Assembly (NCBI GenBank): GCA_016218045.1
Contig: JACRFB010000024.1
Location: 40,613-104,612, forward strand
Source of the DNA: Ignavibacteriota bacterium
GTDB taxonomy: Bacteria; Bacteroidota; Ignavibacteria; SZUA-365
Direction: 5' to 3'
Length of the DNA stretch: 64,000 nt
Position numbers and translations under genes: made by a program. Below are positions 6,749 to 36,100 of the stretch, in pieces. Below the pieces are notes generated by a model. That model saw only the letters and a list, made by a program, of their open reading frames with translations, was not told the DNA's origin and ran no database searches. Within the stretch, counting starts at the first letter, position 1. Each line of letters begins with the position of its first letter.

Positions 6749-6758
6749 GCGTGCCGCC

Positions 6759-7377: not shown

Positions 7378-7399
7378 CTTTGCCCGTATATTCGGGGTC

Positions 7400-9788: not shown

Positions 9789-9791
9789 ACC

Positions 9792-11065: not shown

Positions 11066-11071
11066 CGCGGT

Positions 11072-21135: not shown

Positions 21136-22104
21136 GTGCCGTTGACGACCCATACGTTTCTCGCGCGCAGTGCGACGATGCTCGGCGTTTTCGAACGATT
21201 GAGTACGATCGCACCATCCAGCAGCGCCGTGCTGCTGGTCGGTGAAACGGGTGTGGGCAAGGAGGTGGTGGCGGAGTACATACACCGGCACAGCAACAGA
21301 AATAACCGGCCGTTCGTCAAAGTCGGTCTCGCGACACTTCCGCCGGAGTTGCTCGAGAGTGAGATTTTCGGGCATGAAAAGGGCGCCTACACCAACGCCA
21401 TCGCCGACAAGAAGGGGCTGTTCGAATTGGCGAATCATGGCACAATGTTCCTCGACGACATCGACGATTTTCCGTTACATCTGCAGCCGAAACTCCTGCG
21501 TGTGTTGGAGACGGGCGAAGTGATGCGTGTCGGATCCGTCAGATCCGTTTCGATCGACATCCGTCTCATTTGTGCAACGAAGGTGGATCTGCAGAATCTG
21601 GTGCACCGGGGTTTCTTCCGATCCGATCTTTTTTATCGCATCAATGTTGTGCCGATATACATCCCTCCGCTCCGCGACCGCCGTGATGATGTGCCACTTC
21701 TGATCGAACACTTTCTGCAGCGGTACGCCTCCGACAGGGAGATCCACGTCCATCCCGACGCACTCGCGCGTCTCTGTGCTTACTCGTGGCCGGGCAACGT
21801 GCGCGAACTCCGCAACGTGGCGCAACGTCTGAGCCTCTTTGCTGGCGACACCGTGCAGATCGCGGACCTCCCCGACGAAATCCGGCAGGACAAACACGTA
21901 CCGCACGGATTCGAAGAGTGCGTGCGCTGCGCCATGGACGAGCACCGCGGACTTGACGATATACTCTCGTGTATTGAGTTCACACTTCTGAAGCGCGCCT
22001 TGCGAACGTCCCACGGAAACCGCTCGCAAGCCGCTCGTCGGCTCGGTCTCCGCCTCTCGACGTTCCGCGACCGCCTTCACCGCCACGGACTCGATACAGA
22101 GTAG
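21136..22104 (+). CDS. PspF-like sigma-54 activator (AAA+ plus Fis-type HTH) with unusual motifs
   Basis: 322 residues. There is no receiver or sensor domain; the AAA+ domain starts near residue 10. Walker A is GETGVGKE (36-43). The loop that normally reads GAFTGA is GAYTNA (83-88). Walker B is TMFLDDID (103-110), with Asp where the catalytic Glu normally sits. The arginine-finger region F-R-S-D-L-F-Y-R-I-N-V is kept. The C-terminal Fis-type helix-turn-helix is R-S-Q-A-A-R-R-L-G-L-R-L-S-T-F-R-D-R-L. The start is a GTG with no clear ribosome site, so the exact N-terminus is uncertain. It lies just upstream of, and in line with, a sigma-54 promoter for the Etf-Hdr-Mvh operon, its probable target. 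Confidence 0.9.
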   Translation: MPLTTHTFLARSATMLGVFERLSTIAPSSSAVLLVGETGVGKEVVAEYIHRHSNRNNRPFVKVGLATLPPELLESEIFGHEKGAYTNAIADKKGLFELANHGTMFLDDIDDFPLHLQPKLLRVLETGEVMRVGSVRSVSIDIRLICATKVDLQNLVHRGFFRSDLFYRINVVPIYIPPLRDRRDDVPLLIEHFLQRYASDREIHVHPDALARLCAYSWPGNVRELRNVAQRLSLFAGDTVQIADLPDEIRQDKHVPHGFEECVRCAMDEHRGLDDILSCIEFTLLKRALRTSHGNRSQAARRLGLRLSTFRDRLHRHGLDTE

Positions 22105-22230
22105 GCACAGACCCCGCCAGTCGATTCCGGGACATACGATTTTATTGACGGAGAACCGCAGGGGATAACGGATTTCCGCCACTTTTGTTCTCGACATCGC
22201 GTTTATTCGGGAGTTTTTTCACATTCCGTC

Positions 22231-22246
22231 AGGCATGGGAATTGCA
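22231..22246 (+). promoter_or_regulatory. sigma-54 (-24/-12) promoter of the etf-hdr-mvh operon
   Basis: AGGCATGGGAATTGCA matches the sigma-54 consensus TGGCACG-N4-TTGCA at 10 of 12 fixed positions, with the required GG and GC doublets exactly 10 bases apart. The inferred start of transcription is near 22257, giving a leader of about 35 bases before the ATG at 22292. The activator gene ends 126 bp upstream. A TGACGGA / TCCGTCA pair (22146-22152, 22225-22231) flanks the upstream region and might be part of the control site, but that is weak. Confidence 0.75.
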
Positions 22247-22291
22247 ACATATAACGGATATTATTTCCCTTTTTCCCCCATTCCCCGCCGC

Positions 22292-22552
22292 ATGAAAAAA
22301 CTCCCGCGACCCGGACGAGTGAGTCTCGTCGGAGAGATTGTAGAATTACGCGAGCGTGGCGACGCGCGTACTGCGCGGGTGCTCCTGACCGCAATCTGTT
22401 TCGACATCCCCATCTCCGATCGCACGACGCTGAAGCTTGGCGACAGCGTCTTACTCGAGGCGACAGTCGCGCTGCCGTCATTTTTATCCGTGTCTCCGCC
22501 CGGCGTTGCAACAACACCCGGCGACAGCAGCTCACCAGACGAAGGAGCGTAA
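22292..22552 (+). CDS. Small unknown protein, first gene of the etf-hdr-mvh operon
   Basis: 86 residues; I do not recognise the family. The ATG at 22292 is chosen because an earlier in-frame ATG (22235) lies inside the sigma-54 promoter. The sequence is a basic N-terminus (M-K-K-L-P-R-P-G-R), a beta-rich middle (V-S-L-V-G-E-I-V-E-L, then R-V-L-L-T-A-I-C-F-D-I-P-I) and a Pro/Ser-rich acidic tail. The core might be a small beta barrel. There are no metal-binding motifs beyond a single Cys. It ends 4 bases before etfB. Translation looks genuine by position, but no function can be given. Confidence 0.6.
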   Translation: MKKLPRPGRVSLVGEIVELRERGDARTARVLLTAICFDIPISDRTTLKLGDSVLLEATVALPSFLSVSPPGVATTPGDSSSPDEGA

Positions 22553-22556
22553 ACAG

Positions 22557-23330
22557 ATGGACATTCTCGTTTTTCTCAAGCAGGTGCCGGACCTCGTCGA
22601 AGAGCTCGAAATCGACGCCGGAGGTACCACACTCGACAGCACATGGCTGCGATATATCCCGAGCGAGTACGATGAACACGCGCTCGAACAGGCACTGCTG
22701 CTGAAGGAAAGGCACGGCGGTACCGTACACGTCGTCACCATCGACATCGGCGAAGCCGACGACATGTTGTACTCCGCGCTGGCGAAGGGCGCCGACAGCG
22801 CCGGGAAAATCACGGCGGATTTTTCCGACGGCGCCTCCTCCACGCGGCTCGCGACGGCGCTGCAAGACACGGTATGTACACATCCGTACGATGTGATTCT
22901 GACCGGCGTGCAGAGCATAGACGACGTGGAAGGTCCGACAGGCGCCTTCCTCGCCCGCGGACTCGGCATTCCCTACGTCGGCAGCGTCAACGGCGTGTCG
23001 GTCAACGGCGACGCGGGACGCGCACTCGTCCGAAAGGAATATCCCGGAGGGGCGTTCTCGGAGATCGAGGTACACCTGCCGGCGTTGATTGGCATACAGG
23101 CGGCGGAACAGCCCCCGCGCTATGTGCCCATATCGCGCATCCGCCAGACCAAGGCGCAGGCGCATATCTCGGAATATGCAGCGCCCGAGACCGCGCATCC
23201 TACATGGGGGCGCGTGCTCTCAATGCGTAAAGTGGAGTCAACCGGTTCGGCGGTGATGCTGGACGGAGATCCCGGGGCGGTGGCACAACAACTCGTCGAC
23301 ATACTCCAAGAACACAATGTCCTGAGGTGA
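22557..23330 (+). CDS. etfB: Electron transfer flavoprotein, beta subunit
   Basis: 257 residues. M-D-I-L-V-F-L-K-Q-V-P-D opens the protein and the nucleotide loop reads TGVQSIDDVEGPTG, the EtfB pattern. Together with EtfA it forms the FAD-carrying dimer. Whether the second site in EtfB binds AMP (ordinary ETF) or FAD (bifurcating ETF) cannot be decided by eye. AAGGAG is 9 bases upstream of the ATG. The next gene is etfA, 3 bp away. Confidence 0.93.
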   Translation: MDILVFLKQVPDLVEELEIDAGGTTLDSTWLRYIPSEYDEHALEQALLLKERHGGTVHVVTIDIGEADDMLYSALAKGADSAGKITADFSDGASSTRLATALQDTVCTHPYDVILTGVQSIDDVEGPTGAFLARGLGIPYVGSVNGVSVNGDAGRALVRKEYPGGAFSEIEVHLPALIGIQAAEQPPRYVPISRIRQTKAQAHISEYAAPETAHPTWGRVLSMRKVESTGSAVMLDGDPGAVAQQLVDILQEHNVLR

Positions 23331-23333
23331 TCA

Positions 23334-24314
23334 ATGAACACGAACATTCTCGTGTACGCGGAACGTCTGCGCAGCGGCATCCCCGGGATCGTCTACGAAC
23401 TGCTCGGGAAGGCGCGTGCTCTCGCAGAAGCACACGGATCCGACATCTCTGTTCTTCTGCCGGGACCCGCCACGGAGGAAGAAGTCGCCTCCTTCGGTGC
23501 GGCGCACCGGGTTCTCATCGTCGAACACGATGCCGCGACAAGTCCGACACCCGAGGGCATGCTGCAGTCGGTGCACGACGCCGCGGCCTTGACACAGCCA
23601 GGCCTGCTGCTTATGCCCGCCACCACGCTGGCGAGCGATGTGGCCGCATTGTTTGCCGCCGACACCGGTGCGCGGCTGGTGACCAACTGCATCGATTTCG
23701 ACATCACGCACGATGGAATCACGGCATGCAGCAGACAGTACGGTGGAAAGATCCTTGTGGATGTGCTTGTCGATTCGACACCGGCGGTCCTGTGCGTCCT
23801 CGCCGGAGCGTTCCAGGAGCAGGAGGGCTGCGTCACCGGCACACCATCACCCGTCAAACTGCCCTCACCCGTGCTACCGGACCAGCGCATGCGCGCGACA
23901 CGGTTCATTCCGCCCGCCCCGGGAGATGTGGATCTCGCGCAGATGCCCGTGCTGCTCTCGGTCGGCCGCGGTATTCAGAACAAGGAAAACATCGGCATCG
24001 TGGAGGAACTGGCATCGAAGCTCAACGGCGCCGTATGCGCATCACGTCCCGTCATCGACCAGGGCTGGCTGCCGCTTACGCGGCAGATAGGCCGCTCGGG
24101 CCTCATGGTCAAACCGCGTGTGTACATGGCATTCGGCATCAGCGGAGCACCGGAGCATGTTGAAGGAATGAAGGACGCCGGTCTGATCATCGCCATAAAC
24201 ACCGACAGGACGGCGCCGATATTCAACGTGGCGCATTACGGCGTGGCCGCCGACGCGCTCGATGTCGTGCCCGCGCTGCTGGAGGCGCTCGAGAACGTTG
24301 TACAACACACATGA
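23334..24314 (+). CDS. etfA: Electron transfer flavoprotein, alpha subunit
   Basis: 326 residues. The C-terminal FAD domain is clear: S-V-G-R-G-I-Q-N-K-E-N, then A-S-R-P-V-I-D-Q-G-W, Q-I-G-R-S-G, and the strong signature Y-M-A-F-G-I-S-G-A-P-E-H followed by A-I-N-T-D-R-T-A-P-I-F. EtfA holds the electron-transferring FAD. The stop overlaps the next start (ATGA), so EtfA and the FeS oxidoreductase are coupled, which fits their being redox partners. Confidence 0.94.
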   Translation: MNTNILVYAERLRSGIPGIVYELLGKARALAEAHGSDISVLLPGPATEEEVASFGAAHRVLIVEHDAATSPTPEGMLQSVHDAAALTQPGLLLMPATTLASDVAALFAADTGARLVTNCIDFDITHDGITACSRQYGGKILVDVLVDSTPAVLCVLAGAFQEQEGCVTGTPSPVKLPSPVLPDQRMRATRFIPPAPGDVDLAQMPVLLSVGRGIQNKENIGIVEELASKLNGAVCASRPVIDQGWLPLTRQIGRSGLMVKPRVYMAFGISGAPEHVEGMKDAGLIIAINTDRTAPIFNVAHYGVAADALDVVPALLEALENVVQHT

Positions 24315-26344
24315 TCGAGTCCGGCATGGAACCCACATTGCATTCCGTCGCCGGACTCTCCGGCACAATCTGGCTCGTGCTGCTCGTCGCCGTCTCGCTC
24401 CTGCTGTTCGCGCTTCGCGCAGCGTTCTGGGTGCGTATTCTGCGGCTCTCGAAATCCGACAACCGTTTCTCACATGTCGGCAGACGGCTCGCGCTGGTGG
24501 TCCGGGATGTGTTTCTTCAACCACGATTCCGCGATCACAGCTCGCCCGTGCATACCATTGTGTGGCCGGTTCACCTCGTGATTTTCTGGGGTTTTGTGGT
24601 GTACGCCGTCTCCTTCGCCTGGTCACTTCTGCGCGGCCTGCTGCCGGATTCCGGTTTGCCGTGGCCTGAGCAGATCGGTCCCATTGCGCTGCTGATCGAT
24701 GTGTTCGGCGCACTGGTGCTTGCCGCGTTGGTGATATCCGCGGTGCGTCGGTATGTGCTGCGACCGGAAGGAGTGAAGCGCACTGTCGACGCGGCCATCA
24801 TTCTGACACTCATCGCGCTGGTGATGATCACGGCTCTGGCCGGCGGATCGGCGGCGGTCGCATACGAGGGTCATGCGTCCGCGTGGCGCCCCGTCTCATC
24901 GGCACTGGCGGCCGTTGTGTTTGCGGACGGACGCTCCGCCGAAATCGTGGCAACCGTGTTCTGGTGGCTGCACACCGCCATCGTGCTCGGATTTTTTTCG
25001 TACCTGCCCTACTCGAAACATTTCCATCTGCTGGTGTCGCCGTTCAATGTGTACTTCTCGGATCTTTCGCCAAAAGGCAGTCTGCCCGGCGATGGAGACC
25101 TGTCGGCGAATGAGCGACTGGATCTGCGGGATTTCACCTGGCGCGAGTTGTTATCGTCGCTGTCGTGCGCCGAGTGCGGACGCTGCGACCGCGCCTGTCC
25201 CTCGCACAACAGCGGTGAAGGGCTCTCGCCGCAGGACGTTGTACATGCGTTCAAGGAACACATGCTGACGACAGGATCCGTTCTCGCGCGCTCCCGGAAC
25301 GGCGGCTCGCCTGCTGTACTATCGGACGAGATCCTCGCGCCCGAGCAGGTCTGGGCCTGCGCCACATGTTACAGTTGTATGGAACACTGCCCCGTGCGCA
25401 ACGAACACATCCCGCTGCTCATCCGCGCGCGCCGCCACGAAGTGTCGCGCGGCCGCGTGGATACACATCTGCAGGACACTCTTGTGGCGATGACACGGTA
25501 CGGCAACTCGTTCGGACAATCGGAACGCGCGCGTGCAAAATGGAGCGTGGGACTTCCCTTCAAGATTCCCGACGCGCGCAAACAGGCGGTGCAGACACTC
25601 TGGTTTGTCGGCGACACCGCCTCGTACGACGTCCGTGCACATGGGAGCACACGCGCAATGGCGCAAATCCTGCACGCGGCGGGCGTCGAATTCGGCATAC
25701 TGTACGAGGCCGAGCGCTGCGCAGGAAACGATGCGCGGCGTGTCGGCGAAGAGGGACTGTTCCAGATGCTCGCCGAGAAGAATCTCGCCGTACTTGCCAA
25801 GTGTACGTTCGACGAGATCATCACCACCGACCCGCACACATACAACACGCTGCGGAACGAGTACCCCGCGCTCGGCGGGTCGTTCCGCGTCCGTCATCAC
25901 AGCGAGGTTCTCGCCGAGATTCTGGCCACGGGTGTGTTGAACACAACGCCGCTCGGACTTCGCGCCACGTACCACGACGCCTGCTACCTCGGGCGTTATA
26001 ACGGAATATACGACGCGCCGCGTCGCACCCTCGAGGCGCTCGGTGTAAGACTTACCGAAATGCCACGCGCGGGCCGCGATGGGTACTGCTGCGGGGCGGG
26101 AGGCGGCCGCCTCTGGATGGAGGACAGGCCGGGCGCGCTCGAACGTCCGGCGGAGAGCCGCGTACGCGAAGCCGCGGCATTGCCGCAGGTGGATACACTC
26201 GTTGCCGCCTGCCCGAAGGATCTTGTCATGTTTCTGGACGCGGTGAAGACCGCAAATATCGAGGGCCGTCTCACGATCCGTGAACTCGCCGAACTCGTCT
26301 GGCAGTCCGTTTCCACATCCATTCACGAAGCCGAGGGAACCTGA
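24311..26344 (+). CDS. Membrane FeS oxidoreductase, ETF:menaquinone oxidoreductase type (EMO)
   Basis: 677 residues in three parts. The first ~235 residues are a NarI/DUF224-like membrane domain with about five or six helices and histidines that could hold haem b. Next come two [4Fe-4S] motifs (C-A-E-C-G-R-C-D-R-A-C-P near 285 and C-A-T-C-Y-S-C-M-E-H-C-P near 350). The C-terminal HdrD-like part has a degenerate first CCG domain (DPHT where CPHC is canonical) and an intact second one (CYLGRYN near 556, CCGAGGG near 593). Such proteins next to etfBA pass electrons between ETF and menaquinone. The start overlaps etfA by four bases. Confidence 0.88.
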   Translation: MIESGMEPTLHSVAGLSGTIWLVLLVAVSLLLFALRAAFWVRILRLSKSDNRFSHVGRRLALVVRDVFLQPRFRDHSSPVHTIVWPVHLVIFWGFVVYAVSFAWSLLRGLLPDSGLPWPEQIGPIALLIDVFGALVLAALVISAVRRYVLRPEGVKRTVDAAIILTLIALVMITALAGGSAAVAYEGHASAWRPVSSALAAVVFADGRSAEIVATVFWWLHTAIVLGFFSYLPYSKHFHLLVSPFNVYFSDLSPKGSLPGDGDLSANERLDLRDFTWRELLSSLSCAECGRCDRACPSHNSGEGLSPQDVVHAFKEHMLTTGSVLARSRNGGSPAVLSDEILAPEQVWACATCYSCMEHCPVRNEHIPLLIRARRHEVSRGRVDTHLQDTLVAMTRYGNSFGQSERARAKWSVGLPFKIPDARKQAVQTLWFVGDTASYDVRAHGSTRAMAQILHAAGVEFGILYEAERCAGNDARRVGEEGLFQMLAEKNLAVLAKCTFDEIITTDPHTYNTLRNEYPALGGSFRVRHHSEVLAEILATGVLNTTPLGLRATYHDACYLGRYNGIYDAPRRTLEALGVRLTEMPRAGRDGYCCGAGGGRLWMEDRPGALERPAESRVREAAALPQVDTLVAACPKDLVMFLDAVKTANIEGRLTIRELAELVWQSVSTSIHEAEGT

Positions 26345-26347
26345 CCC

Positions 26348-27556
26348 ATGCTTGCCACCGAACATGCCGTCGAACAGATCTGGGGAGTGACGCTGGATCG
26401 TTTGTACGATTCCGAGGAGGGACGCAGAATTCTTTCCTGCATCCAATGCGGCACCTGCGCGGGCACGTGCCCGCATGGTGAGTACATGGAGTATCCGGCG
26501 CGCCGCATCATCACGATGCTGAAAGCGGGGTTGATCGAAGACGTCTTCAATTCCGACAGTCTCGTCAAGTGCGTCAACTGTTACGCGTGCCAGACGAAGT
26601 GTCCGCGCAACATCCGTCTCACGGAGATCCTTCTGCCGCTGGTCAAGGAGCAGAGCATATTGCGGCTCGCGCAGATGCCCGCCGAATTACAGAAGGCGGT
26701 TGAAAACACGTACCGCTATGGCAATCCGATGGGCGAATCGGGAAGAAAGCGCGCGCAGTGGACGCGCACGAGTCCCGTGCCCGTACGGATATTCTCCGAA
26801 GATCCGCGACCGGCCGATGCGCTCTGGTTCGTCGAATCCGATCTGTCATTCCATCCCCGCGGCCAGGATATCGCGCGCGCGACGGCCCGCGTCTTTCACG
26901 CCATCGGCGCCGACGTGGCCATACTCGGAAACGAGGAACGCGCGGCGGGCGACTGCGGACGTCTCTCCTGGGAGCCGGGCCTGTCGGAGGCGCTCATCGA
27001 CTACACCATGTCCATCCTTCAGAAATACCGATTCAACCGGATCATCGTATCCGATCCCCATGCGCTGGACGCGTTCAAGTACCGCTACCCGATGTTCGGT
27101 TTTGATTACCCGGTGGAATCGGTCCTCGGCTTCGTCGCCGCGCGGCTCGACGTGCTCGCGCCGCAGCTTACCTCGCCCATACACAAGACGGCGACGTATC
27201 ACGACTCGTGCTGCCTCGGCCGCCACAACGCCCTGTTCGACGAACCGCGCGCACTGCTGAAGGCCATACCGGGACTCTCGCTCGTGGAGATGGCGCACAA
27301 CCGCGAGAACGCGGTGTGCTGCGGCGGCGGGGGCGGCGGCATGTGGCTTGACACCTACTACAAGGCGCGCAACATGGAACGCCTGTCGGACCGGCGCATT
27401 CGCGAGGCCATCGCAACAGGCGCCGACGTGCTTGCCATCGCGTGTCCATACGAGGTGTCGCGGTTCGAGGACGCCGTAAAGGTGGCCGGCATGGACCAGC
27501 GCATGGAGGTACGCGACATAATGGAATTGCTCGTCGAATCGCTCGGAGGACAATAA
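26348..27556 (+). CDS. HdrD-like (HdrC-HdrB fusion) FeS protein
   Basis: 402 residues. The N-terminal HdrC-like part has two [4Fe-4S] motifs (C-I-Q-C-G-T-C-A-G-T-C-P near 31 and C-V-N-C-Y-A-C-Q-T-K-C-P near 75). The HdrB-like part has a degenerate first CCG domain (DPHA in place of CPHC) and a complete second one (SCCLGRHN near 285, CCGGGGGG near 324), the usual ligand set for a non-cubane cluster. Methanogen HdrB and HdrC are separate and reduce CoM-S-S-CoB; in this bacterium the disulfide or other acceptor is unknown. It is followed 1 bp later by hdrA. Confidence 0.88.
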   Translation: MLATEHAVEQIWGVTLDRLYDSEEGRRILSCIQCGTCAGTCPHGEYMEYPARRIITMLKAGLIEDVFNSDSLVKCVNCYACQTKCPRNIRLTEILLPLVKEQSILRLAQMPAELQKAVENTYRYGNPMGESGRKRAQWTRTSPVPVRIFSEDPRPADALWFVESDLSFHPRGQDIARATARVFHAIGADVAILGNEERAAGDCGRLSWEPGLSEALIDYTMSILQKYRFNRIIVSDPHALDAFKYRYPMFGFDYPVESVLGFVAARLDVLAPQLTSPIHKTATYHDSCCLGRHNALFDEPRALLKAIPGLSLVEMAHNRENAVCCGGGGGGMWLDTYYKARNMERLSDRRIREAIATGADVLAIACPYEVSRFEDAVKVAGMDQRMEVRDIMELLVESLGGQ

Positions 27557-27557
27557 C

Positions 27558-29555
27558 ATGGACGGCAACGGAGAGATCCGCGTCGGCTTCTACATCTGTC
27601 ACTGCGGCAGCAACATCGCCGGACTCATCGACGTGGAGCGGGTTGCCGCGTACGCCGCGCGGCTGCCCGGCGTCGTACTTGCGCGCGACTACAAGTACAT
27701 GTGTTCGGATCCGGGACAGGCGCTGCTCGAGCAGGACATCCGCGAGCACGCGCTGAACCGCATTGTTGTCGCCTCGTGTTCCCCGCTGCTGCATGAACAG
27801 ACATTCCGCAACGCCACCGAGCGCGGCGGGTTGAATCCATTTTATATGCACATGGTGAACATCCGCGAACACGGGTCGTGGGTGCACAACGACGGCGAAC
27901 TTGCAACGGGAAAGGCGATGGACATGGTGCGCGCGGCCGTGCGGCGCGTCGCCTTCCACGAGCCGCTCGAACGGCGTTCCGTCAACGTGACACCCGCCGT
28001 GCTTGTAGTCGGCGGCGGCATCGCGGGCATACACGCGGCGCTCACCATCGCGCACGCAGGCAGGAAGGTGTACCTCGTTGAGCGCGATCCCAGCATCGGC
28101 GGACACATGGCGCAATTCGACAAGACGTTTCCGACGCTCGACTGCGCGGCGTGTATTCTGACCCCGAAGATGACCGCGGTGAAGTCGCACCCGAACATCA
28201 CGCTCTGGACATACTCCGAGGTGGAGCGCGTCGAGGGCTACGTGGGCAATTACCGCGTGACCGTAAAGCGGAAGCCGCGCTATGTGATCGAGGACCTCTG
28301 TGTCGGCTGCCTCGAGTGCATCGAGGCCTGTATCTACAAGAACGGTCGCTGGCCTGACGAGTTCAACATGGGACTCAGCAAACGCAAGCCCGTGTACATC
28401 CCCTTTCCGCAGGCGGTGCCGCCCGTGCCCGTCATCGACCCGGAGCACTGTGTACACATCAAGACGGGCACATGCAAGGATCTGTGTGTACAGATTTGCG
28501 CGGACCGCGAAGCGATCGATTTTTCGCAGCAGGCCGAACACATCGACATTGACGTGGGGGCCGTGATCCTGGCGACGGGCTTCCGCGCCTTCGATCCGAA
28601 GCGTATCCCGTACTACGGGTACGGCGTCCTGCCGAACGTGTACACGGCACTCGAGTTCGAACGCATCGTAAACTCGTCGGGCCCGACGGGCGGCGAGGTG
28701 GTGATGCGCAACGGCCGCGCGCCCGAGCGTGTCGCGATCGTGCACTGCGTCGGTTCGCGCGACGAGGATTACAACCGCTGGTGTTCGCGCGTCTGCTGCA
28801 TGTACTCGCTGAAACTCGCGCATCTGGTGAAGGAGAAGACCGGCGCGGAGGTGTACAGTTTCTACATCGACATGCGCGCGGCGGGCAAGGGCATGGAGGA
28901 ATTCTACAACCGTGTGTCGTCGGAGGGTGTACATCTCGTGCGCGGACGTGTCGCCGACATCACACCAGAAACGCTGCCCCCGCCTGAGGACGGCAGCGGT
29001 CGCGTGATAGTGCAGGCCGAGGACACACTGATCGGGCGGATACGAAAGATACCGGTGGACATGGTGATACTCTCCACCGGCCTCGAACCCCGGGAGGATG
29101 CGGAAGATGTGCGGCGCATGTTCACCATCTCCTGTTCCACCGGCGGCTTCTTCCTCGAGCGCCACCCGAAGCTCGCGCCCGTCAGCACCTTCACCGACGG
29201 CATCTACCTCGCCGGCGCCTGCCAGGGACCGAAGGACATTCCCGACACCGTCGCGCAGGCCGGAGGAGCCGCCGCGGAGGCGCTTGCGCTACTCGACGCG
29301 GGTTCGTTCGAGCTTGAACCCAACACGGCATATATCGACGATGATGCCTGTTCGGGCTGCCTGAGCTGCCTGCCGCTGTGCCCGTACACCGCGATCACAC
29401 GCGACGACGAGACGAAGAAGGCGCGTATCAACGAGGCGCTCTGCAAGGGTTGTGGCACATGTGTCGCGTCCTGTCCGTCCGCATCCATTCGTCAACACCT
29501 GTTCGAAGACGCCGAGATTCTCAGCGAGATCGACGGCCTGCTCTCCTACCACTGA
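27558..29555 (+). CDS. hdrA: HdrA-type flavin and FeS subunit (electron bifurcation)
   Basis: 665 residues, close to methanogen HdrA. The N-terminal region has Cys motifs (Y-I-C-H-C-G-S-N near 12-19, C-S-P near 74). FAD-binding glycine motif VVGGGIAG is at 150-157, followed by GGHMAQFDKTFPTLDCAAC. An inserted ferredoxin motif C-V-G-C-L-E-C-I-E-A-C lies near 252, and two [4Fe-4S] motifs near the C-terminus (C-S-G-C-L-S-C-L-P-L-C-P and C-K-G-C-G-T-C-V-A-S-C-P). HdrA carries the bifurcating flavin that splits electron pairs from MvhD between HdrBC and ferredoxin. GGAGGA lies 7 bases before the ATG. Confidence 0.93.
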   Translation: MDGNGEIRVGFYICHCGSNIAGLIDVERVAAYAARLPGVVLARDYKYMCSDPGQALLEQDIREHALNRIVVASCSPLLHEQTFRNATERGGLNPFYMHMVNIREHGSWVHNDGELATGKAMDMVRAAVRRVAFHEPLERRSVNVTPAVLVVGGGIAGIHAALTIAHAGRKVYLVERDPSIGGHMAQFDKTFPTLDCAACILTPKMTAVKSHPNITLWTYSEVERVEGYVGNYRVTVKRKPRYVIEDLCVGCLECIEACIYKNGRWPDEFNMGLSKRKPVYIPFPQAVPPVPVIDPEHCVHIKTGTCKDLCVQICADREAIDFSQQAEHIDIDVGAVILATGFRAFDPKRIPYYGYGVLPNVYTALEFERIVNSSGPTGGEVVMRNGRAPERVAIVHCVGSRDEDYNRWCSRVCCMYSLKLAHLVKEKTGAEVYSFYIDMRAAGKGMEEFYNRVSSEGVHLVRGRVADITPETLPPPEDGSGRVIVQAEDTLIGRIRKIPVDMVILSTGLEPREDAEDVRRMFTISCSTGGFFLERHPKLAPVSTFTDGIYLAGACQGPKDIPDTVAQAGGAAAEALALLDAGSFELEPNTAYIDDDACSGCLSCLPLCPYTAITRDDETKKARINEALCKGCGTCVASCPSASIRQHLFEDAEILSEIDGLLSYH

Positions 29556-29579
29556 CACCGTGCGCACAGCGAGGACAAC

Positions 29580-30101
29580 ATGAACGACACTGTCGAACAA
29601 ACGGACACGGCTCCCGCGTGGCGGCCGTGCATCGTGGCCTTTTTCTGCACGTGGTGCACATACACGGCGGCGGATCTTGCCGGTGTGGCGCGCATGAAAT
29701 ACGCACCGAACACACGCGTGATACGCGTCATGTGTTCCGGACGCATCGATCCGCAATTTATCCTGGCGGCGTTCGCGCGCGGCGCCGACGGCGTGCTGGT
29801 CGGCGGCTGTCATCCCGGCGATTGCCACTACGCCGAAGGCAACACGAAGATGCTGCGACGCGCCGAACTTGTACATCGCGTTCTCGACGGCATGGGTATT
29901 GCCCGTGAGCGTTTCCGGCTCGAGTGGATCTCCGCCTCGGAAGGCGACAAGGTGAAGAGTGTCATCAACGGCATGGTGGACACACTCACGGTGCTCGGAC
30001 CGCTGAACCTGCCCGGAACCTTTCAGTCGTGGGACAACGAGTTGGAGGAAGGAAACGAGGCGCGTGCACTGCAGTTGGAGGAGGAACCAAGCCATGTCTG
30101 A
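29580..30101 (+). CDS. mvhD: MvhD-type electron-transfer subunit linking hydrogenase to HdrA
   Basis: 173 residues with the [2Fe-2S]-type pattern of the MvhD/FrhD family: F-F-C-T-W-C-T-Y near the N-terminus, V-M-C-S-G-R-I-D in the middle and G-G-C-H-P-G-D-C-H-Y. It hands electrons from the hydrogenase small subunit to HdrA. It lies exactly between hdrA and the hydrogenase small subunit, as expected, and overlaps the latter by 8 bases. Confidence 0.92.
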   Translation: MNDTVEQTDTAPAWRPCIVAFFCTWCTYTAADLAGVARMKYAPNTRVIRVMCSGRIDPQFILAAFARGADGVLVGGCHPGDCHYAEGNTKMLRRAELVHRVLDGMGIARERFRLEWISASEGDKVKSVINGMVDTLTVLGPLNLPGTFQSWDNELEEGNEARALQLEEEPSHV

Positions 30102-31083
30102 CAAACCGAAGGTGGGGTTGTACTGGTGCGCATCCTGCGGCGGTTGTGAGGAATCGGTGGTGGATCTCGCCGAGGACATTCTGGCCGTGGTGGATGCGGT
30201 GGACATCGTATTCTGGCCCGTCGCAATGGACTTCAAAAAAAGCGACATCGAGGCGATGCCCGACGCGAGCATCTTTGCGACGCTGGTCAACGGCGCCGTG
30301 CGCACATCCGAACAGGAAGAGATGGCGCGGCTGCTGCGCCGCAAGAGCCAGGTTCTGATCGCCTACGGATCGTGCGCGCACAGCGGTGGCATTCCTGCGC
30401 TCGCGAATCTGTACGAGAAGGAACGGATCCTGCAGTACGTCTACCACGACGCAAGCACCGTCGACAATACGGAGGGTGTGCGCCCTCAAGCGAAACACAG
30501 CGAAAACGGATTTGCCGTCACCCTGCCCCGCTTCCGCGCCACGGTGCGGAGTCTGGGTCAGGTCGTGGATGTCGATTACACGATCCCCGGCTGTCCGCCG
30601 ACACCACGTCTCCTCAAGGAGGCGCTGTTCGCGTTGCTCGGCGGAGCGCGACCGCCCAAGGGTACGGTGCTCGCGCCCGACACCGCGCTCTGCGACGAGT
30701 GCCCCCGGCGCGACAGCAAGCCGGTGGATCTGCACTTCGACGCGTTCGGACGACCACACACGACACTCGTCCGCGACGACACGTGTTTCCTCGCGGCGGC
30801 GGTACCCTGCATGGGTCCTGCAACACGCGGCGGCTGCGAGGCGCTGTGTCCCTCCGGCAACATGCCCTGCACGGGGTGTTTCGGCCCCACGTCCCGGGTG
30901 CTGGATCAGGGCGCGAAGATGATGTCGTCGCTCGCCTCGAACATCGGCGCGGAGGAGCCGGAGGCGATTCGCTCCGTGCTCGACACCATTCCGGATCCAC
31001 TCGGCACCTTCTACCGGTACGGACTGGCGACGTCGCTGCTGCGGCGCGTTCACAATTCCCAGACAGACTCCCCACAATCTTGA
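30094..31083 (+). CDS. mvhG: [NiFe] hydrogenase small subunit, group 3c (MvhG-type)
   Basis: 329 residues from the ATG at 30094; a start 30 bases earlier would lie deeper in mvhD. No Tat signal, so it is cytosolic. Cysteines for the three clusters are seen in Y-W-C-A-S-C-G-G-C-E-E-S, Y-G-S-C-A-H-S-G-G, I-P-G-C-P-P-T-P and the C-terminal M-P-C-T-G-C-F-G-P ferredoxin-like set. The pattern is that of F420-non-reducing (Mvh) small subunits. Confidence 0.92.
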   Translation: MSDKPKVGLYWCASCGGCEESVVDLAEDILAVVDAVDIVFWPVAMDFKKSDIEAMPDASIFATLVNGAVRTSEQEEMARLLRRKSQVLIAYGSCAHSGGIPALANLYEKERILQYVYHDASTVDNTEGVRPQAKHSENGFAVTLPRFRATVRSLGQVVDVDYTIPGCPPTPRLLKEALFALLGGARPPKGTVLAPDTALCDECPRRDSKPVDLHFDAFGRPHTTLVRDDTCFLAAAVPCMGPATRGGCEALCPSGNMPCTGCFGPTSRVLDQGAKMMSSLASNIGAEEPEAIRSVLDTIPDPLGTFYRYGLATSLLRRVHNSQTDSPQS

Positions 31084-31090
31084 GGACGCC

Positions 31091-32611
31091 ATGAACGACG
31101 AGACGCGCGGCACAGTTCAGACACAGGACGTGCAGATCACACCACGCGAGGAGGGCGGTCGGCGTATCACCATCGATCCGATCACACGGCTCGAAGGGCA
31201 TGGCAAGATCGACATTTTCCTCGATGACAACGGGGATGTGGAACGCGCCTACTTTCAGGTTCCGGAATTGCGGGGCTTCGAGGTGTTCAGCGTGGGTCGG
31301 CCGGCGGAGGATATGCCGCAGATCACGAGCCGCATATGCGGCGTCTGCCCCACAGCGCATCACATGGCCGGTACAAAGGCGCTCGACGCCCTCTACGACG
31401 TCACACCCACCACAACGGCGAAGAAGCTGCGCGAGCTGCTCTACAACATATTTATGCTCGAGGATCACGCGCTGCATGTGTTCGTCCTCGGCGGGCCCGA
31501 CTTCATCGTGGGGCCCGACGCGCCCGCGGCGCAGCGCAACATACTCGGCGTGATCGGCGCGGTGGGACTCGAAGTGGGCACGCGTGTCATCGACATGCGG
31601 AAACGGCTGCGCGGCCTGTTACAACATCTCGGCGGCAAGGCGATACATCCCGTGTTCGGACTGCCGGGAGGTGTCGCGAAACGCCTGGATCCCTCCGAGC
31701 TGCCGCGTTTCCGCGAGGTGGCGCGCGACGGACTCGACTTCGCGCGTTTCACGCTGAAGGTGTTCAAAGACGTGGTGCTGAAGAACGACGACTACCTGAA
31801 ATTGATCACCTCGTATCCATACACACACAAGACCTACTACATGGGGCTCGTCGATTCCGAGAACCGGGTCAATTTCTACGACGGAAGTATCAGGGTTGTG
31901 GATCCCAACGGTGAAGTATACGCGCGATTTCCCGGCGCGCTGTACGCCGATTACATCGCCGAACACGTGGAGCCGTGGAGTTACGTGAAGTTCTGCTACC
32001 TCAAACCCGTGGGATGGAACGGATTCCGCGAAGGTGTCGACAGCGGCATCTACTCGGTGGCGCCGCTGGCGCGGCTCAACGCGGCCGAGGGCATGGCCAC
32101 GCCGGAGGCGCAGAAGGCCTTCGACGAATACTTCGCGACACTGAGCCATCCCGTGCATCACACACTCGCCAATCACTGGGCGCGCGTGGTTGAAATGGTG
32201 TATGCCGCGGAGCGTATCAACGAGCTTCTCGACGATCCCGACATCACCGGCACCGACATCCGCGCCGCATTGACGCGGCAGCCCTCGGTGGGCATCGGCG
32301 TCGTGGAGGCGCCGCGCGGCACGCTGATACATCACTACGAAAGCGATGAACGGGGCGTCATCACTCGCGCCAACCTCATCGTCGCGACGCAGAACAACGC
32401 GGCACGCATGGCCATGAGTGTGGAGAAGGCGGCCCGCGGACTCATTCACAACGGCGAAGTGTCGGACGGTCTGTTGAACAAAATCGAGATGGCATTTCGC
32501 GCCTATGATCCATGCCACGCCTGCGCCACACACAGTCTGCCGGGACAGATGCCGTTGATCGCGCGAATTCTGAAACGCGACGGATCGCTGCATCGAGAAC
32601 TGCGCCGGTGA
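31091..32611 (+). CDS. mvhA: [NiFe] hydrogenase large subunit, group 3c (MvhA-type)
   Basis: 506 residues. Nickel ligands are in R-I-C-G-V-C-P (L1, near 78-84) and D-P-C-H-A-C-A-T-H (L2, near the C-terminus). A 25-residue tail follows the L2 histidine, the sort of extension removed by a dedicated protease once nickel is inserted; that protease is the next gene. I-D-P-I-T-R-L-E-G-H is the N-terminal signature. Group 3c enzymes oxidise H2 in the cytoplasm and feed HdrABC. The Hyp maturation genes are not in the window. Confidence 0.94.
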   Translation: MNDETRGTVQTQDVQITPREEGGRRITIDPITRLEGHGKIDIFLDDNGDVERAYFQVPELRGFEVFSVGRPAEDMPQITSRICGVCPTAHHMAGTKALDALYDVTPTTTAKKLRELLYNIFMLEDHALHVFVLGGPDFIVGPDAPAAQRNILGVIGAVGLEVGTRVIDMRKRLRGLLQHLGGKAIHPVFGLPGGVAKRLDPSELPRFREVARDGLDFARFTLKVFKDVVLKNDDYLKLITSYPYTHKTYYMGLVDSENRVNFYDGSIRVVDPNGEVYARFPGALYADYIAEHVEPWSYVKFCYLKPVGWNGFREGVDSGIYSVAPLARLNAAEGMATPEAQKAFDEYFATLSHPVHHTLANHWARVVEMVYAAERINELLDDPDITGTDIRAALTRQPSVGIGVVEAPRGTLIHHYESDERGVITRANLIVATQNNAARMAMSVEKAARGLIHNGEVSDGLLNKIEMAFRAYDPCHACATHSLPGQMPLIARILKRDGSLHRELRR

Positions 32612-32612
32612 C

Positions 32613-33068
32613 ATGACAACACTCGTTCTCGGTCTCGGCAACGACATACTCGGCGACGACGGCGTGGGCATCGAGGCGGCCCGCGGATTGCGCGCGCTTG
32701 GCGGCACGGACATCGAGGTTATCGAATCGGCCGAGGCGGGCCTCGCGCTGCTTGAGATTCTCGAGGGCTACGACACGGCGCTGATTCTCGACGCGATGTG
32801 CACGGGCGTCCATACACCCGGCAGCATTGTGGAGTTCGGCCCGGAATCGTTCCGCACCGTCACGGCTCCATCGCCGCATTATGCCGGGCTCCCCGAGGTG
32901 CTTGCCATGGCGGATGTGCTCGAACTGTCCTTCCCGCGCACGATACGTATCCTCGCGATGGAGGTCGAGGATCCGTATTCCATTCACGAGGGCCTGTCGC
33001 CCGCTGTCAGGGCCGCATTGCCGGAGTTCATCACACGCGCGGCGGCGCTGCTGGCTTCGAACGGGTAA
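32613..33068 (+). CDS. Hydrogenase maturation endopeptidase (HycI/HyaD family)
   Basis: 151 residues. The N-terminal G-L-G-N-D-I-L-G-D-D-G-V-G carries the family GNxLxxDDGxG motif with the nickel-sensing acidic residues; I-L-D-A-M is the second conserved Asp region; P-S-P-H-Y-A-G-L gives the histidine. It should trim the C-terminal tail of the large subunit encoded one base upstream. It is the last gene of the operon, 51 bp before a strong bidirectional terminator. Confidence 0.92.
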   Translation: MTTLVLGLGNDILGDDGVGIEAARGLRALGGTDIEVIESAEAGLALLEILEGYDTALILDAMCTGVHTPGSIVEFGPESFRTVTAPSPHYAGLPEVLAMADVLELSFPRTIRILAMEVEDPYSIHEGLSPAVRAALPEFITRAAALLASNG

Positions 33069-33166: not shown

Positions 33167-36100
33167 TTACCGCGCGAGCACCATGGAGCCCACACGCATC
33201 TGCGCACCCGCCGTCACGGTGTATCGGTACACACCACTCGGGAGATTGCGCGCGGTAAACGTGAAGGAGTGTGTGCCCGCGGGCAGTGCGCCCGAGTGCA
33301 CCATCGCCACTTCCCTGCCGTTCGCGTCGAACACCGAGATGACAACGTGTTCGTCGGTAGGCAGCGCGAAGGTGATCGCCGTCTGCGGATTAAACGGATT
33401 CGGATAGTTGCCGAACAGTTCGAATCCCGCGATGGAGGTCGAGACACGCACTTCGTTGGAGTACGAGAAACTGCCGTCGCGATCGGTCATGCGCAGGCGG
33501 TACACGTATTCCTTCGCGGCCGGGAGGCGGTCGTCGGTGAATGTGTAATCGCTCGGCGTGTCGACAGAACCGCGGGCGTCCACGAAGCCGATCTCATCCC
33601 AGCCCGCAATGCCGCGGCGCTCGATGTAGTAACGGTACGAGTTGAGTTCGCTCGCCGTCCTCCAGTCGAGGCGCACCGCGTTCGCGAGCAGTCGCGCGCG
33701 GAACGAGACGAGTTCGACAGGAAGCGGATTGGTGTTGTCGCTTATCGTGAAATCGGAGAACGAGGCAAGACCCGCTTCGGTCACGGACTTTACCGTCGTG
33801 TTTACGGTCGATGTCGGATAATGCGTCCACACGCCGCCGTCGCGCTTGGCAAGACGCGCGTTGGCTTCCGTGCCCAACGTGCCCCAGATTGCCGGTGTGT
33901 AGAACAGCGTCATGTCGTACGTGAAGCCCGAACCACCCGTGGCAGTGAAGTTCCAGTACGCGTTGGCATACTGTCCCTGCAGCGGACTCGGAGGATTGAC
34001 GCCCGGATAATACTGGCCTGTGACTGCGCTCGGCAGCGTGCCGCCGGTGCCCCACAGGATTTCGGCGACCTTGCGTCCGCCGAACCAGTAATACGACATC
34101 TGACCCGCAGCGAGACTGCCGGTTTCGATCAGCGACGGCGGCGCGGCCGAAGCCGTGAATTCGTCGGCGCCGATGTCGGTCCCGACACCAAGCGTCGTCG
34201 AACGCACACTCGTGGCGGCGTAATCGTCCGCGATGTTGTTGGATGCGGATCCGGCGATGCCGTTACCGTTCATGTACCACGAGGCGGCGTTGGTGCCGTC
34301 CACGCTCAGATTCGCATTGTTCGGATCCGTGAAGATCGACGAGGGAAGCTGGCTTGTGGTGGCGTAGTACGTGAATGCGCCGCCGGCACTGTCTTTCCAG
34401 GCTGAAAGCGCCTTGCCGGAGTACGGATAGCCCCACGGACCCCAATCACCCACAGTACCGGAATCGGTTGTGACCAGCAGGTTGTAATCCACATTGGTCG
34501 GATTCCAGTTCGTCAGATAGGTCGCGCGTGTGTTGCCGATCGCGTAGTGTTTGCCCGTGCCTCCCGTGCGACCGTTGTAACAGAGGTTGTTGCGGAACGT
34601 GATCGTGCTCTGTGCGCGACGATTAAATGCGTAGGTGTTGGTGGTGTCGGTTCCGGGATTGTTGCCCGTCACGTAGAACGAGTTGTAGTACCACTCGCTC
34701 GTGGTGACCGAATCAACATCCTCGGCGGCCGAGAAGTTCACACGCGCGCCGATCGAATCGCCCACCGCCACCATGTTGTTGCTGTACACAACTGCGCCCG
34801 ACGACTGCGCGTAGATGCCGTAGAGGCGTGCCGTGCGATACTGCAGACCCGCGCCGGTGCTGCTGATGTCCCACACCTTGTTGCGACGAATCTGCGCACC
34901 GGGCGTGGTCGAGACGTAGATGCCGCCCACGACGGTGGCGCTGTCGTTGGCGGACGTGTTCGTCAGATTAAAGACGGTGTTCTGATACACATTCTGACCC
35001 GCCGCCGACGAGGTGACGAGGAAGCCGAGCAGCGAGAAGGTGTTCAGCACGGAATCGGCGGCGGTCGATCCGGTATGCACGATATTGTTCGAGGCCGAGT
35101 TGATGCCGCCCGCGAGGTACAACATGTACACGTTGCCCTTGCGTGTGCTGGTCAGATTGCCGACGGTGTTCGAAGTCACGGTGTTTGTACCGGCGGACGA
35201 TATCGTCATGCCTTGTATCGAACCCTGGAACGAATTGTTCGTGAGTTGCGACACGGTGTTGTTGCTGACCGTTGCGGGCTGCAGCGTGCTCTGGACGTAG
35301 AGGCCGTAGATGCCCGACGAGACGCCGTTGTTTGTGAAACCGGTCACGGTGTTGTTCGTGACCGACACCGTCCCGGTGACACCGACGAGTATTCCATACA
35401 TGGACGAGGCGCCGGTATTGCCGCTCACCGTGTTGTTCGAGATGGTCGCGTTCGCCAGCGTGCCGCTGTGATACATGCCGTACTGTGTGGACGTGTTGTA
35501 GAGGCCCGACACCGAGTTGTTCGAGAGTGTGTTGTTGCCGCCGCTGCTCGAAAAATAAATACCCGCAAGCGTGGTGGCGGCGCCGGTCAGACCGCTCAGG
35601 GTGTTTCCGCTGATTGTCGCACTGTTATTGCCGGCGTAGTAGAGGCCGTATAACGTGCTTCCCGCGGCGACGTGGTTCACGATGTTATCCGTGATCGTCG
35701 CCGTGCCGCCCGGTATGTAGATCGGGTACACGACGTTGTTGCTCTGGATGTATCCCACCGTGTCGTTGTCAACAGTCACCGTGCCGTTGCCGGAGTAGTA
35801 CACGCCGTACGTTGTGCTTGTGGAGGCAAACAACGTGTCGGATCCGGCGGTGTTCGAACCGATGCGGTTGTCGGTGATGTTCAGGTTGCCCGAGGTCGCA
35901 TAGATGTTGTACTGACCAGCGGCGCTTGTTGTCACGTTGCCGATGATGTTGTTGGAGATGGTGTTTGTCGCTCCGAGGGGTCCGGCGAAGTAGATGCCCT
36001 GGAAGGCCGGCGTGGTGGCGTAGGTGGTGGTCATCGCCGCGCCGCCGCGCACCGCGTCGCTGCCGCCGATGCTGTTGTAGCGGAAACTGTGTCCGTCGCC

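What the first reader, a model, noticed from the sequence alone, without database searches (positions are those of the whole stretch)
22292..33068. An ETF-quinone module and an Hdr-Mvh bifurcation module joined in one operon
Genes are packed with overlaps or gaps of no more than 24 bp: unknown, etfB, etfA, ETF:menaquinone-type FeS oxidoreductase, HdrD-like, HdrA, MvhD, MvhG, MvhA, protease. HdrA-MvhADG is known from methanogens to split electrons from H2 between ferredoxin and a disulfide. Etf plus the membrane FeS protein normally links dehydrogenases to menaquinone. Having all in one unit suggests H2 oxidation, HdrA bifurcation and the quinone pool are coupled, with the HdrD-like protein or ETF as one acceptor. 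The organism should not make CoM/CoB, so the acceptor is unknown.
Basis: partly seen in the sequence, partly recalled or inferred. Interest (0 to 1): 0.8.

Follow-up and report, generated by a model that had tools for sequence, protein, structure and literature searches.

The report
Hydrogenase wired to quinone and ferredoxin
Bacteria related to Ignavibacteria carry one conserved gene set for a methanogen-type hydrogenase, its likely electron-splitting partner and a likely membrane quinone reductase, and together these are predicted to use the respiratory quinone, in place of the methanogens' disulfide, to drive hydrogen's electrons uphill onto ferredoxin.

Summary
In detail: etfB-etfA-etfD-HdrD-like-hdrA-mvhD-mvhG-mvhA-protease lie head to tail with gaps of -8 to +24 bp; only the leading 'unknown' ORF is doubtful. 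It is no local accident: in 14 of 14 Bacteroidota/Ignavibacteria loci hdrD-hdrA-mvhD-mvhG-mvhA follow each other, and in 12 of 14 etfB-etfA-etfD lie directly upstream (the other two are cut by contig ends). In three relatives a near-consensus sigma-54 site lies upstream of etfB; the window's is weaker. HdrA keeps the bifurcation-site lysine, MvhA the group 3c motifs, EtfD both heme histidines and both menaquinone-contact phenylalanines. The HdrD-like protein has lost the disulfide-reducing site, has the EtfD fold, and is sister to the protein found beside etfAB in type II sulfur-oxidising Hdr clusters. Best reading (inferred): H2 -> HdrA bifurcation -> ferredoxin, and HdrD-like -> ETF -> EtfD -> menaquinone. 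The parts are known; ten capped searches of open papers listed no report of the combination, but key subscription papers could not be read. No activity is shown, and in one Acidobacteria genome the two halves lie apart.

The parts
21136..22104 (+). sigma-54-dependent activator (AAA+ and Fis-type HTH, no sensor domain found), likely regulator
   Evidence: Pfam PF00158 1.2e-62, PF02954 4.7e-09; conserved directly upstream of etfB in L110 and L112 at 59-60%; GAYTNA loop, a GAFTGA-like motif (motif role recalled)
22231..22246 (+). possible sigma-54 promoter AGGCAT-N5-TTGCA, 9 of 11 consensus letters
   Evidence: 122 of 2000 base shuffles of the gap reach 9 of 11, so weak alone; 10 of 11 upstream of etfB in 3 of 3 relatives examined (L110, L111, L112), reached by 2-4 of 2000 shuffles
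22292..22552 (+). doubtful small ORF (86 aa)
   Evidence: no Pfam or NCBIfam match; relatives have a shorter gap here
22557..23330 (+). EtfB
   Evidence: PF01012; best solved relative is 1o94 ETF beta
23334..24314 (+). EtfA
   Evidence: PF00766, PF01012; solved relatives 6fah, 5ol2, 1o94; group-2 bifurcating motifs RXGV and GXXSPTXV absent
24311..26344 (+). EtfD-type membrane ETF:menaquinone oxidoreductase (by homology)
   Evidence: best solved relative 9ojn, M. smegmatis EtfD, 3.6e-81; heme His88/His239, menaquinone-contact Phe95/Phe228 and 8 cubane Cys conserved; D1 ligands 1 of 4 kept
26348..27556 (+). HdrD-like protein: HdrC/HdrB fusion without the disulfide-reducing site; predicted HdrA-to-ETF connector
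27558..29555 (+). HdrA, FAD protein, predicted electron-bifurcating subunit
   Evidence: NCBIfam HdrA2 3e-248, below its cut-off, which covers an HdrA-MvhD fusion; PDB 8rvu/5odc; Lys419 = 5ODC Lys409, Cys199 = Cys197
29580..30101 (+). MvhD
   Evidence: PF02662 2.4e-51; 5odc_D 8e-48
30094..31083 (+). MvhG, hydrogenase small subunit
   Evidence: VhuG model 1.9e-62, below its curated cut-off; 9sw2_E, 5odc_E
31091..32611 (+). MvhA, group 3c [NiFe]-hydrogenase large subunit with C-terminal extension
   Evidence: L1 ICGVCPTAH, L2 AYDPCHACATH, then a 25-residue tail; 5odc_F 1.6e-103; VhuA model 4e-118, below its curated cut-off
32613..33068 (+). hydrogenase maturation protease
   Evidence: TIGR00072 4.2e-28, above cut-off

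Best explanation
The operon encodes an HdrA-MvhADG hydrogenase set, an HdrC/HdrB-fusion protein that has lost the heterodisulfide site, an ETF and an EtfD-type protein, and these likely act together as an H2-oxidising, electron-bifurcating system that would send one electron branch to ferredoxin and the other through HdrD-like, ETF and EtfD to menaquinone. Steps: (1) MvhAG oxidises H2 and MvhD passes electrons to HdrA (inferred from homology to the solved HdrABC-MvhADG complex). (2) The HdrA flavin bifurcates; the low-potential branch goes to ferredoxin (inferred; flavin-site lysine and most cysteines shown conserved). (3) The high-potential branch goes through the two cubane clusters of the HdrD-like protein to its remaining non-cubane-type site, which would be an ETF-docking site and not a disulfide site (inferred from the lost ligands and the homology to EtfD). 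(4) ETF carries electrons from that site to the homologous site of EtfD (inferred). (5) EtfD passes them through two cubane clusters and heme b to menaquinone (inferred; heme and quinone residues shown). So ETF would sit between two homologous docking proteins, one reducing it and one oxidising it. The likely benefit is reduced ferredoxin for the Fd-dependent oxidoreductases that these bacteria encode beside heme-copper oxidases, paid for by the quinone pool.
For: Gene order: hdrD-hdrA-mvhD-mvhG-mvhA in 14 of 14 Bacteroidota/Ignavibacteria loci (window included), with etfB-etfA-etfD directly upstream in 12 of 14. HdrA: Lys419 and Cys199 equal 5ODC Lys409 and Cys197; 18 of 22 5ODC Cys in the mapped part (residues 3-501) kept, and all 8 of the C-terminal ferredoxin domain in the printed alignment; of the four lost, three are also absent from 8RVU HdrA. 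MvhA L1 motif in the window and 9 of 9 relatives examined, L2 in 8 of 9, the ninth (L036) being cut before it. EtfD: His88/His239 and Phe95/Phe228 equal the heme and menaquinone residues of 9ojn (residues from PMC13083937). HdrD-like: 8 cubane Cys plus Cys288, 324, 325, 366 and His238 kept, last Cys replaced by Glu369, all invariant in 31 of 31 rows aligned; strict HdrB motif absent, while it occurs twice in each of two true HdrBs used as controls. Fold equals the EtfD soluble part. The HdrD+EtfBA set recurs with a different donor in sHdr-type sulfur clusters: HdrD-EtfBA in 4 of 4, EtfD in 3 of 4; a paper defines type II sHdr by the fused shdrB3 with etfAB (PMC11582611). PMC13083937 argues that FadF and DgcB, which lack D1, take electrons from ETF at D2; both window proteins lack a complete D1 and keep most of D2. 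Sigma-54 sites upstream of etfB, RpoN in 8 of 8 genomes. POR-type oxidoreductases and heme-copper oxidases in 10 of 10 operon genomes each.
Against: No experiment. No complex was modelled, so HdrD-ETF contact is untested. ETF could be fed by another donor. In eight loci outside the window's family the etfD-hdrD gap is 26-251 bp and could hold a promoter. etfB, etfA and etfD diverge faster (35-49% against the Ignavibacteria and Acidobacteria H2-type loci) than hdr and mvh genes (59-78%), so co-evolution is loose. In Acidobacteria G403 a true HdrB with both sites is added to the same operon, so another acceptor may exist there, and G404 has the two halves on different contigs. The window's sigma-54 site is weak. 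The last D2 Cys is missing from both proteins, so the nature of that cluster is unknown. Except for the protease, the curated NCBIfam cut-offs are not reached. The ATP-citrate lyase citrate-binding family was above its cut-off in 0 of 10 genomes, so the use of the ferredoxin is not obvious.
Confidence: 0.6

Rival explanations
1. Same complex, opposite main direction: during oxygen or acceptor limitation, reduced ferredoxin and menaquinol (or ETF) electrons are confurcated to make H2, as a safety valve.
For: Hdr-Mvh is reversible in principle (discussed in PMC9012536, passages); all 10 operon genomes tested encode POR-type oxidoreductases that can make reduced ferredoxin. My arithmetic from potentials in abstracts (H2 -414, MQ -74, Fd -450 or -500 mV) puts the balance point near 0.7-5 Pa H2, a plausible environmental value.
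Against: All 10 genomes have heme-copper oxidases, which would keep the quinone pool oxidised and favour bifurcation. Nothing in the sequence sets the direction.
Confidence: 0.2
2. No bifurcation: HdrA works only as a wire and the unit is a plain H2:menaquinone oxidoreductase.
For: The short HdrA (353 aa) of the sHdr-type loci, in the same HdrD/Etf setting, aligns only with about residues 263-578 of the window HdrA, so HdrD-Etf does not by itself require a full bifurcating HdrA.
Against: Window HdrA is full length and keeps the inserted and C-terminal ferredoxin cysteines and the flavin-site lysine. A simple uptake hydrogenase would not need HdrA or MvhD (inference).
Confidence: 0.1
3. ETF is an input, not an output: an acyl-CoA dehydrogenase or similar enzyme reduces ETF, and the Hdr part uses those electrons, or both feed menaquinone independently from one operon.
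For: EtfD family members serve beta-oxidation (PMC13083937).
Against: No dehydrogenase gene was seen, reading by eye, inside the operon in the loci annotated. The genome holds a second EtfD with all D1 and D2 ligands elsewhere (C16, L058). The HdrD-like protein accompanies etfBA also in sulfur clusters.
Confidence: 0.08
4. An unknown disulfide or other small substrate is reduced at the HdrD-like protein, as in methanogens.
For: Fold shared with HdrB and EtfD; Acidobacteria G403 adds a true HdrB with both motifs.
Against: In the window and all 14 HdrD-like homologues compared the first CCG site lacks its full ligand set and the last Cys of the second is replaced. No separate hdrB was seen by eye inside the operons; the genomes were not searched for hdrB.
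Confidence: 0.05

Closest known systems
HdrABC-MvhADG, H2:heterodisulfide/ferredoxin bifurcating complex of methanogens (PDB 5ODC, 8RVU, 9SW2)
   Same: HdrA, MvhD, MvhG and MvhA homologous over nearly full length with motif, flavin-site and most cluster residues kept.
   Different: HdrC and HdrB replaced by one fused protein without the two catalytic non-cubane sites; etfB-etfA-etfD added in the same operon.
Type II sHdr sulfane-sulfur oxidation clusters (shdrC1B1AHB3 + etfAB; definition in PMC11582611, passages seen)
   Same: Fused HdrC2B2-type protein next to etfB, etfA and mostly an EtfD; sister clade in the tree.
   Different: No shdrC1, shdrB1 or lipoate-binding protein in the window unit; donor is a [NiFe]-hydrogenase; HdrA is the full-length type.
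EtfD, ETF:menaquinone oxidoreductase (M. smegmatis EtfD 9OJN, FadF, DgcB; the name 'EMO' is recalled and appears in no passage I read)
   Same: Membrane-domain heme and quinone residues, two cubane sites, most of the D2 site.
   Different: D1 incomplete (reported also for FadF/DgcB) and last D2 Cys replaced by Asp; tied to Hdr-Mvh genes.
EtfABCX / FixABCX, NADH:menaquinone/ferredoxin bifurcating complexes (PMC10734219, abstract start and passages seen)
   Same: Menaquinone as the high-potential acceptor that drives ferredoxin reduction.
   Different: Bifurcation there is at the EtfAB flavin with NADH as donor; here the group-2 ETF motifs are absent and bifurcation would be at HdrA with H2.

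Membership tests
HdrA-MvhADG (group 3c [NiFe]-hydrogenase with HdrA) | MvhA L1 ICGxCxxxH and L2 AYDPCxxCATH motifs (definition in PMC6085437) | tested here: met
   ICGVCPTAH at 82, AYDPCHACATH at 471
HdrA-MvhADG (group 3c [NiFe]-hydrogenase with HdrA) | Full-length HdrA with FAD domain, cluster cysteines and the lysine at the bifurcating flavin | tested here: met
   alignment to 5ODC over query 6-662; Lys419, Cys199; 18 of 22 Cys in the part mapped, 8 of 8 in the C-terminal part
HdrABC-MvhADG heterodisulfide reductase | HdrB with two CX31-39CCX33-38CX2C sites | tested here: not met
   0 motifs in the HdrD-like protein; 2 in each of two control HdrBs
HdrABC-MvhADG heterodisulfide reductase | H2-dependent ferredoxin and disulfide reduction | not testable with these tools
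   needs biochemistry
EtfD (ETF:menaquinone oxidoreductase) | Membrane domain with two heme b His and menaquinone contacts, two cubane sites | tested here: met
   His88, His239, Phe95, Phe228, 8 Cys
EtfD (ETF:menaquinone oxidoreductase) | Linear [3Fe-4S] D1 site of M. smegmatis EtfD | tested here: not met
   1 of 4 ligands kept (Cys470); the genome's second EtfD keeps all 4. FadF and DgcB also lack D1 (PMC13083937), so D1 does not define the wider family
Type II sHdr | Fused HdrC2B2 (shdrB3) gene with etfAB in one cluster | tested here: met
Type II sHdr | shdrC1, shdrB1 and lipoate-binding protein genes in the cluster | tested here: not met
   none among the genes of the window unit 21136-33068; present in L053, L054, L101, L102 (families of L101). 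By eye one H2-type locus, L043, has a GcvH-like ORF 2.6 kb from etfB on the other strand
Group-2 bifurcating ETF (FixAB/EtfABCX) | EtfA RXGV and GXXSPTXV, EtfB RPXFGG (PMC10734219) | tested here: not met
   none of the three in the window; RKEYPGG in EtfB

The most novel reading that the evidence does not exclude
A respiratory-quinone-driven electron bifurcator: H2:menaquinone,ferredoxin oxidoreductase, in which HdrA's high-potential branch leaves through a repurposed HdrB that reduces ETF, and ETF is re-oxidised by a homologous membrane protein. HdrD-like + ETF + EtfD would then be a portable 'quinone plug' that evolution has fitted to at least two HdrA systems, one fed by H2 and one by sulfane sulfur, letting bacteria with oxygen-respiring oxidases run an enzyme thought to belong to strict anaerobes.
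Probability: 0.5. Interest if true: 0.8.

Novelty: new variant of a known kind. Interest (0 to 1): 0.64.

Why it matters
In the passages seen, HdrA-Mvh bifurcation is described for obligate anaerobes, mostly archaea, with a disulfide acceptor (PMC6085437). A Caldithrix genome paper noted Hdr-3c clusters in some bacteria and appears to leave their function open (PMC5317091; the passage shown is cut off there), and one Ignavibacteriae genome paper assumed a heterodisulfide acceptor (PMC7509429, passages). If the reading is right, the acceptor in these bacteria is the menaquinone pool, the system works in organisms with heme-copper oxidases, and trace H2 could supply low-potential ferredoxin to respiring cells. 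It would also give the fused HdrC2B2 protein of type II sulfur oxidisers a concrete role: ETF reductase. The question 'what replaces CoM-S-S-CoB in bacterial Hdr-Mvh' becomes directly testable.

Tried and rejected
Rejected: HdrD-like as a heterodisulfide reductase (ligands lost). Rejected: window ETF as a group-2 bifurcating ETF (motifs absent); the Bcd/CarDE type of bifurcating ETF was not tested separately, and EtfA's best solved match is 6fah CarE, so a second flavin in ETF is not excluded. Considered and not supported: reductive TCA by ATP-citrate lyase as ferredoxin user (0 of 10 genomes above the family cut-off, two weak hits below it). Considered: the etf half acquired separately from the hdr half, because of its lower identity; but etfB/A/D are also only 43-53% between the window and L110-L112, which have 71-72% hdrD and the same order (etfD of G711, 65%, is the closest), so faster change is the simpler reading; not tested further.

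Led nowhere: one paper search returned mostly human disease papers; two key papers, recalled or seen only as references (Appel 2021 BBA review on HdrA(BC) modules; Agne 2021 PNAS), are not held, so a prior description of this combination cannot be excluded. HypB was looked for only in four own-genome stretches (none found), not genome-wide. G402's Mvh was not resolved. In one search the simple gene picker mislabelled or missed some genes (hdrD of L110, mvhG of L109-L111); the clean table is. L110 was left out of the tree for that reason, and of the operon or cluster EtfDs only seven, plus the genome's second EtfD, were put in that tree.

Literature basis: ten searches, some with capped lists (20 of 22, 20 of 31 and 20 of 60 shown); no listed title or abstract start describes Hdr-Mvh joined to Etf/EtfD, but most listed papers were not opened. 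Passages only were seen of PMC9012536, PMC5317091, PMC7509429, PMC11582611, PMC12423496, PMC5736913, PMC10734219, PMC6085437 and PMC13416013; of PMC13083937 passages and the Discussion.
Full report
What is there. The window carries, on the + strand, etfB, etfA, an EtfD-type FeS membrane protein, an HdrC/HdrB fusion, hdrA, mvhD, mvhG, mvhA and a hydrogenase protease between 22557 and 33068, with gaps of -8 to +24 bp. A sigma-54 activator gene lies upstream at 21136-22104. The 86-aa ORF at 22292 has no family match. The space it occupies is 161 bp in one relative, too short for it, and 320 bp in another, against 452 bp here, so I treat it as doubtful. Apart from the protease, the subunits match their best NCBIfam models below the curated cut-offs.

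Is it more than one genome's accident? Yes. With the HdrD-like protein as bait I found relatives at 63-74% in 12 named contigs (the scan looks for exact peptide patterns only). Of 395 genomes sampled across the phylum, 3 including the window's own have it at below 1e-180 (138 of 395 match at 1e-40, judging by frame length mostly through an EtfD). Of 16 genomes of the order, 6 have it, again including the own one. In 14 of 14 hdrD is followed by hdrA, mvhD, mvhG and mvhA; L036 is cut inside mvhA, and L041 has two extra ORFs between mvhG and mvhA. In 12 of 14 etfB-etfA-etfD lie directly upstream; etfB is cut by the contig start in L040 and split by a frame break in L034. In L109 the contig ends inside etfD, and in L032 it ends inside hdrD, with etfB-etfA-etfD on another contig of the same genome (L089). 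In seven loci hypA and hypB follow downstream, and hypF in the six of them whose stretch reaches it (L033, L034, L035, L040, L042, L043; not L041); hypC and hypD follow too in L043 (all read by eye).

One transcription unit? In the window and its family the genes nearly touch: the etfD-hdrD gap is 3 bp in the window, L111 and L112. Between the activator gene and etfB, L110 and L112 have TGGCAC-N5-TTGCT sites matching 10 of 11 letters; L111, whose contig begins in that region, has a 10 of 11 site too. Base shuffles of the gap reach this in 2 to 4 of 2000. The window's site at 22231 matches 9 of 11 (122 of 2000 shuffles), and a related one-mismatch pattern has 5 hits in the window on both strands against 1.9 expected. 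RpoN is present in 8 of 8 genomes tested. Against this, the etfD-hdrD gap is 26-251 bp in eight more distant loci. Promoters there were not looked for. No expression data exist.

HdrA and the hydrogenase. HdrA aligns over nearly its full length with the solved methanogen complexes (2e-215 to 8RVU, 2.2e-209 to 5ODC). Of 22 Cys of 5ODC HdrA in the part mapped (residues 3-501), 18 are Cys in the window; three of the four others are not Cys in 8RVU either, and the eight of the C-terminal ferredoxin domain are all kept (alignments). Lys409, which a paper places 3.4 A from the bifurcating flavin (PMC10734219, passage), is Lys419. MvhA has the group 3c L1 and L2 motifs as defined in PMC6085437 and a 25-residue tail that the adjacent protease would clip. 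MvhG and MvhD match the solved subunits over most of their length. The genome has hypA, hypF, hypC and hypD on C42 and hypE on C13 (hypA and hypF by eye, hypC by its N-terminal motif).

EtfD. The operon EtfD keeps His88 and His239 (heme b), Phe95 and Phe228 (menaquinone contacts) and the cubane Cys (residue roles from PMC13083937). It keeps only one D1 ligand; FadF and DgcB lack D1 too, and for them that paper infers that ETF hands electrons to D2. The genome has a second EtfD (C16, L058) with all D1 and D2 ligands, so the operon copy is likely a dedicated one.

The same set elsewhere. In four loci (G005, G087, G499, G435) an HdrD-like homologue (41-48% identical to the window's) sits with etfB-etfA, and in three of four with etfD, downstream of hdrC, hdrB, a short hdrA and a GcvH-like (lipoate-binding) gene (families checked for L101). 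That is the arrangement a paper defines as type II sHdr, sulfane-sulfur oxidation, with the fused gene shdrB3 plus etfAB (PMC11582611, passages). A tree of 28 rows puts the 16 H2-linked HdrD-like proteins in one clade (100/100), the four sulfur-linked ones in a sister clade (99/98), and the eight EtfD proteins apart (100/100) (a long EtfD branch is flagged there and the root is a midpoint). In Acidobacteria three loci have hdrD-etfB-etfA-etfD, followed by hdrA in the two that reach that far. In G403 the operon continues with hdrC, a true hdrB, a second hdrA, mvhD, mvhG, mvhA and protease; in G404 such a set lies on another contig. Only 3 of 297 genomes sampled in that phylum have the protein at 1e-100: G403 itself and two of the sulfur type.

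Mechanism. I infer H2 -> MvhAG -> MvhD -> HdrA flavin. One branch goes to ferredoxin. The other goes to HdrD-like clusters -> its D2-type site -> ETF -> EtfD D2 -> cubanes -> heme b -> menaquinone. With H2 at -414 mV, menaquinone at -74 mV and ferredoxin at -450 or -500 mV (abstracts and passages) my arithmetic gives a break-even near 0.7-5 Pa H2, lower if the quinone pool is oxidised. All 10 operon genomes tested have heme-copper oxidases and POR-type oxidoreductases. In 8 of 10 Mvh is the only [NiFe]-hydrogenase large subunit seen, counting two fragments on two contigs in G399 as one. The window genome also has a Hox-like NAD-linked hydrogenase (by eye and mvhA similarity), and G395 has further matches. 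ATP-citrate lyase was not found, so ferredoxin may serve POR-type carboxylation or other uses; this is open.

Novelty. Each part is known. No listed title or abstract start in ten searches of open papers, some lists capped, describes a group 3c HdrA bifurcator joined to the ETF/EtfD quinone exit, but the main review on HdrA(BC) modules could not be read. I file it as a new variant of a known kind.

Noticed in passing
26348-27556 and 24311-26344: The last Cys of the CCG site is Glu in all 31 HdrD-like rows aligned (CPYE) and Asp (CPKD) in all 13 cluster EtfDs whose site is covered: a possible carboxylate ligand to an unusual FeS cluster.
   Followed up: partly
G000:C59:50000-64000 (L090): Second [NiFe]-hydrogenase in the genome, in a nuoE-nuoF-hoxU-like gene row (NAD-linked type by eye).
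   Followed up: partly
G000:C16:56882-58879 (L058): A second EtfD with all linear [3Fe-4S] D1 ligands, separate from the operon EtfD.
   Followed up: yes
L053, L054, L101, L102: Type II sHdr-like sulfur clusters in two genomes of the window's phylum and two of the Acidobacteria phylum sample, with lipoate-type genes by eye; L101 lacks an adjacent etfD and has an aminotransferase-like ORF (by eye) between hdrD and etfB.
   Followed up: partly
L099 (G403) 4582-11409: Acidobacterial operon with two hdrA genes and a true HdrC-HdrB between the Etf half and Mvh: possibly two acceptor arms on one HdrA heterodimer.
   Followed up: partly
33167-43732 and 44991-55115, - strand: Two giant secreted-type proteins (3521 and 3374 aa) with BNR_assoc_N, FlgD_ig and Por_Secre_tail matches (the tail match of the first and the FlgD_ig match of the second are just under their cut-offs).
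   Followed up: partly
L033:4111-4917 and L033:15494-15940: A weakly CMP-kinase-like gene directly upstream of etfB recurs by eye in seven Ignavibacteria-type loci, and a CBS-domain gene lies downstream of mvhA in three (L033, L034, L041); their role is unknown.
   Followed up: partly
L035:13552-14262 and L042:15618-16328: Membrane protein gene beside the protease gene, by eye a nickel-transporter (UreH-like) type; no NCBIfam match for the L042 copy.
   Followed up: no
L041:13900-14828: Two extra ORFs (by eye a membrane transporter component and a cupin) inserted between mvhG and mvhA.
   Followed up: no
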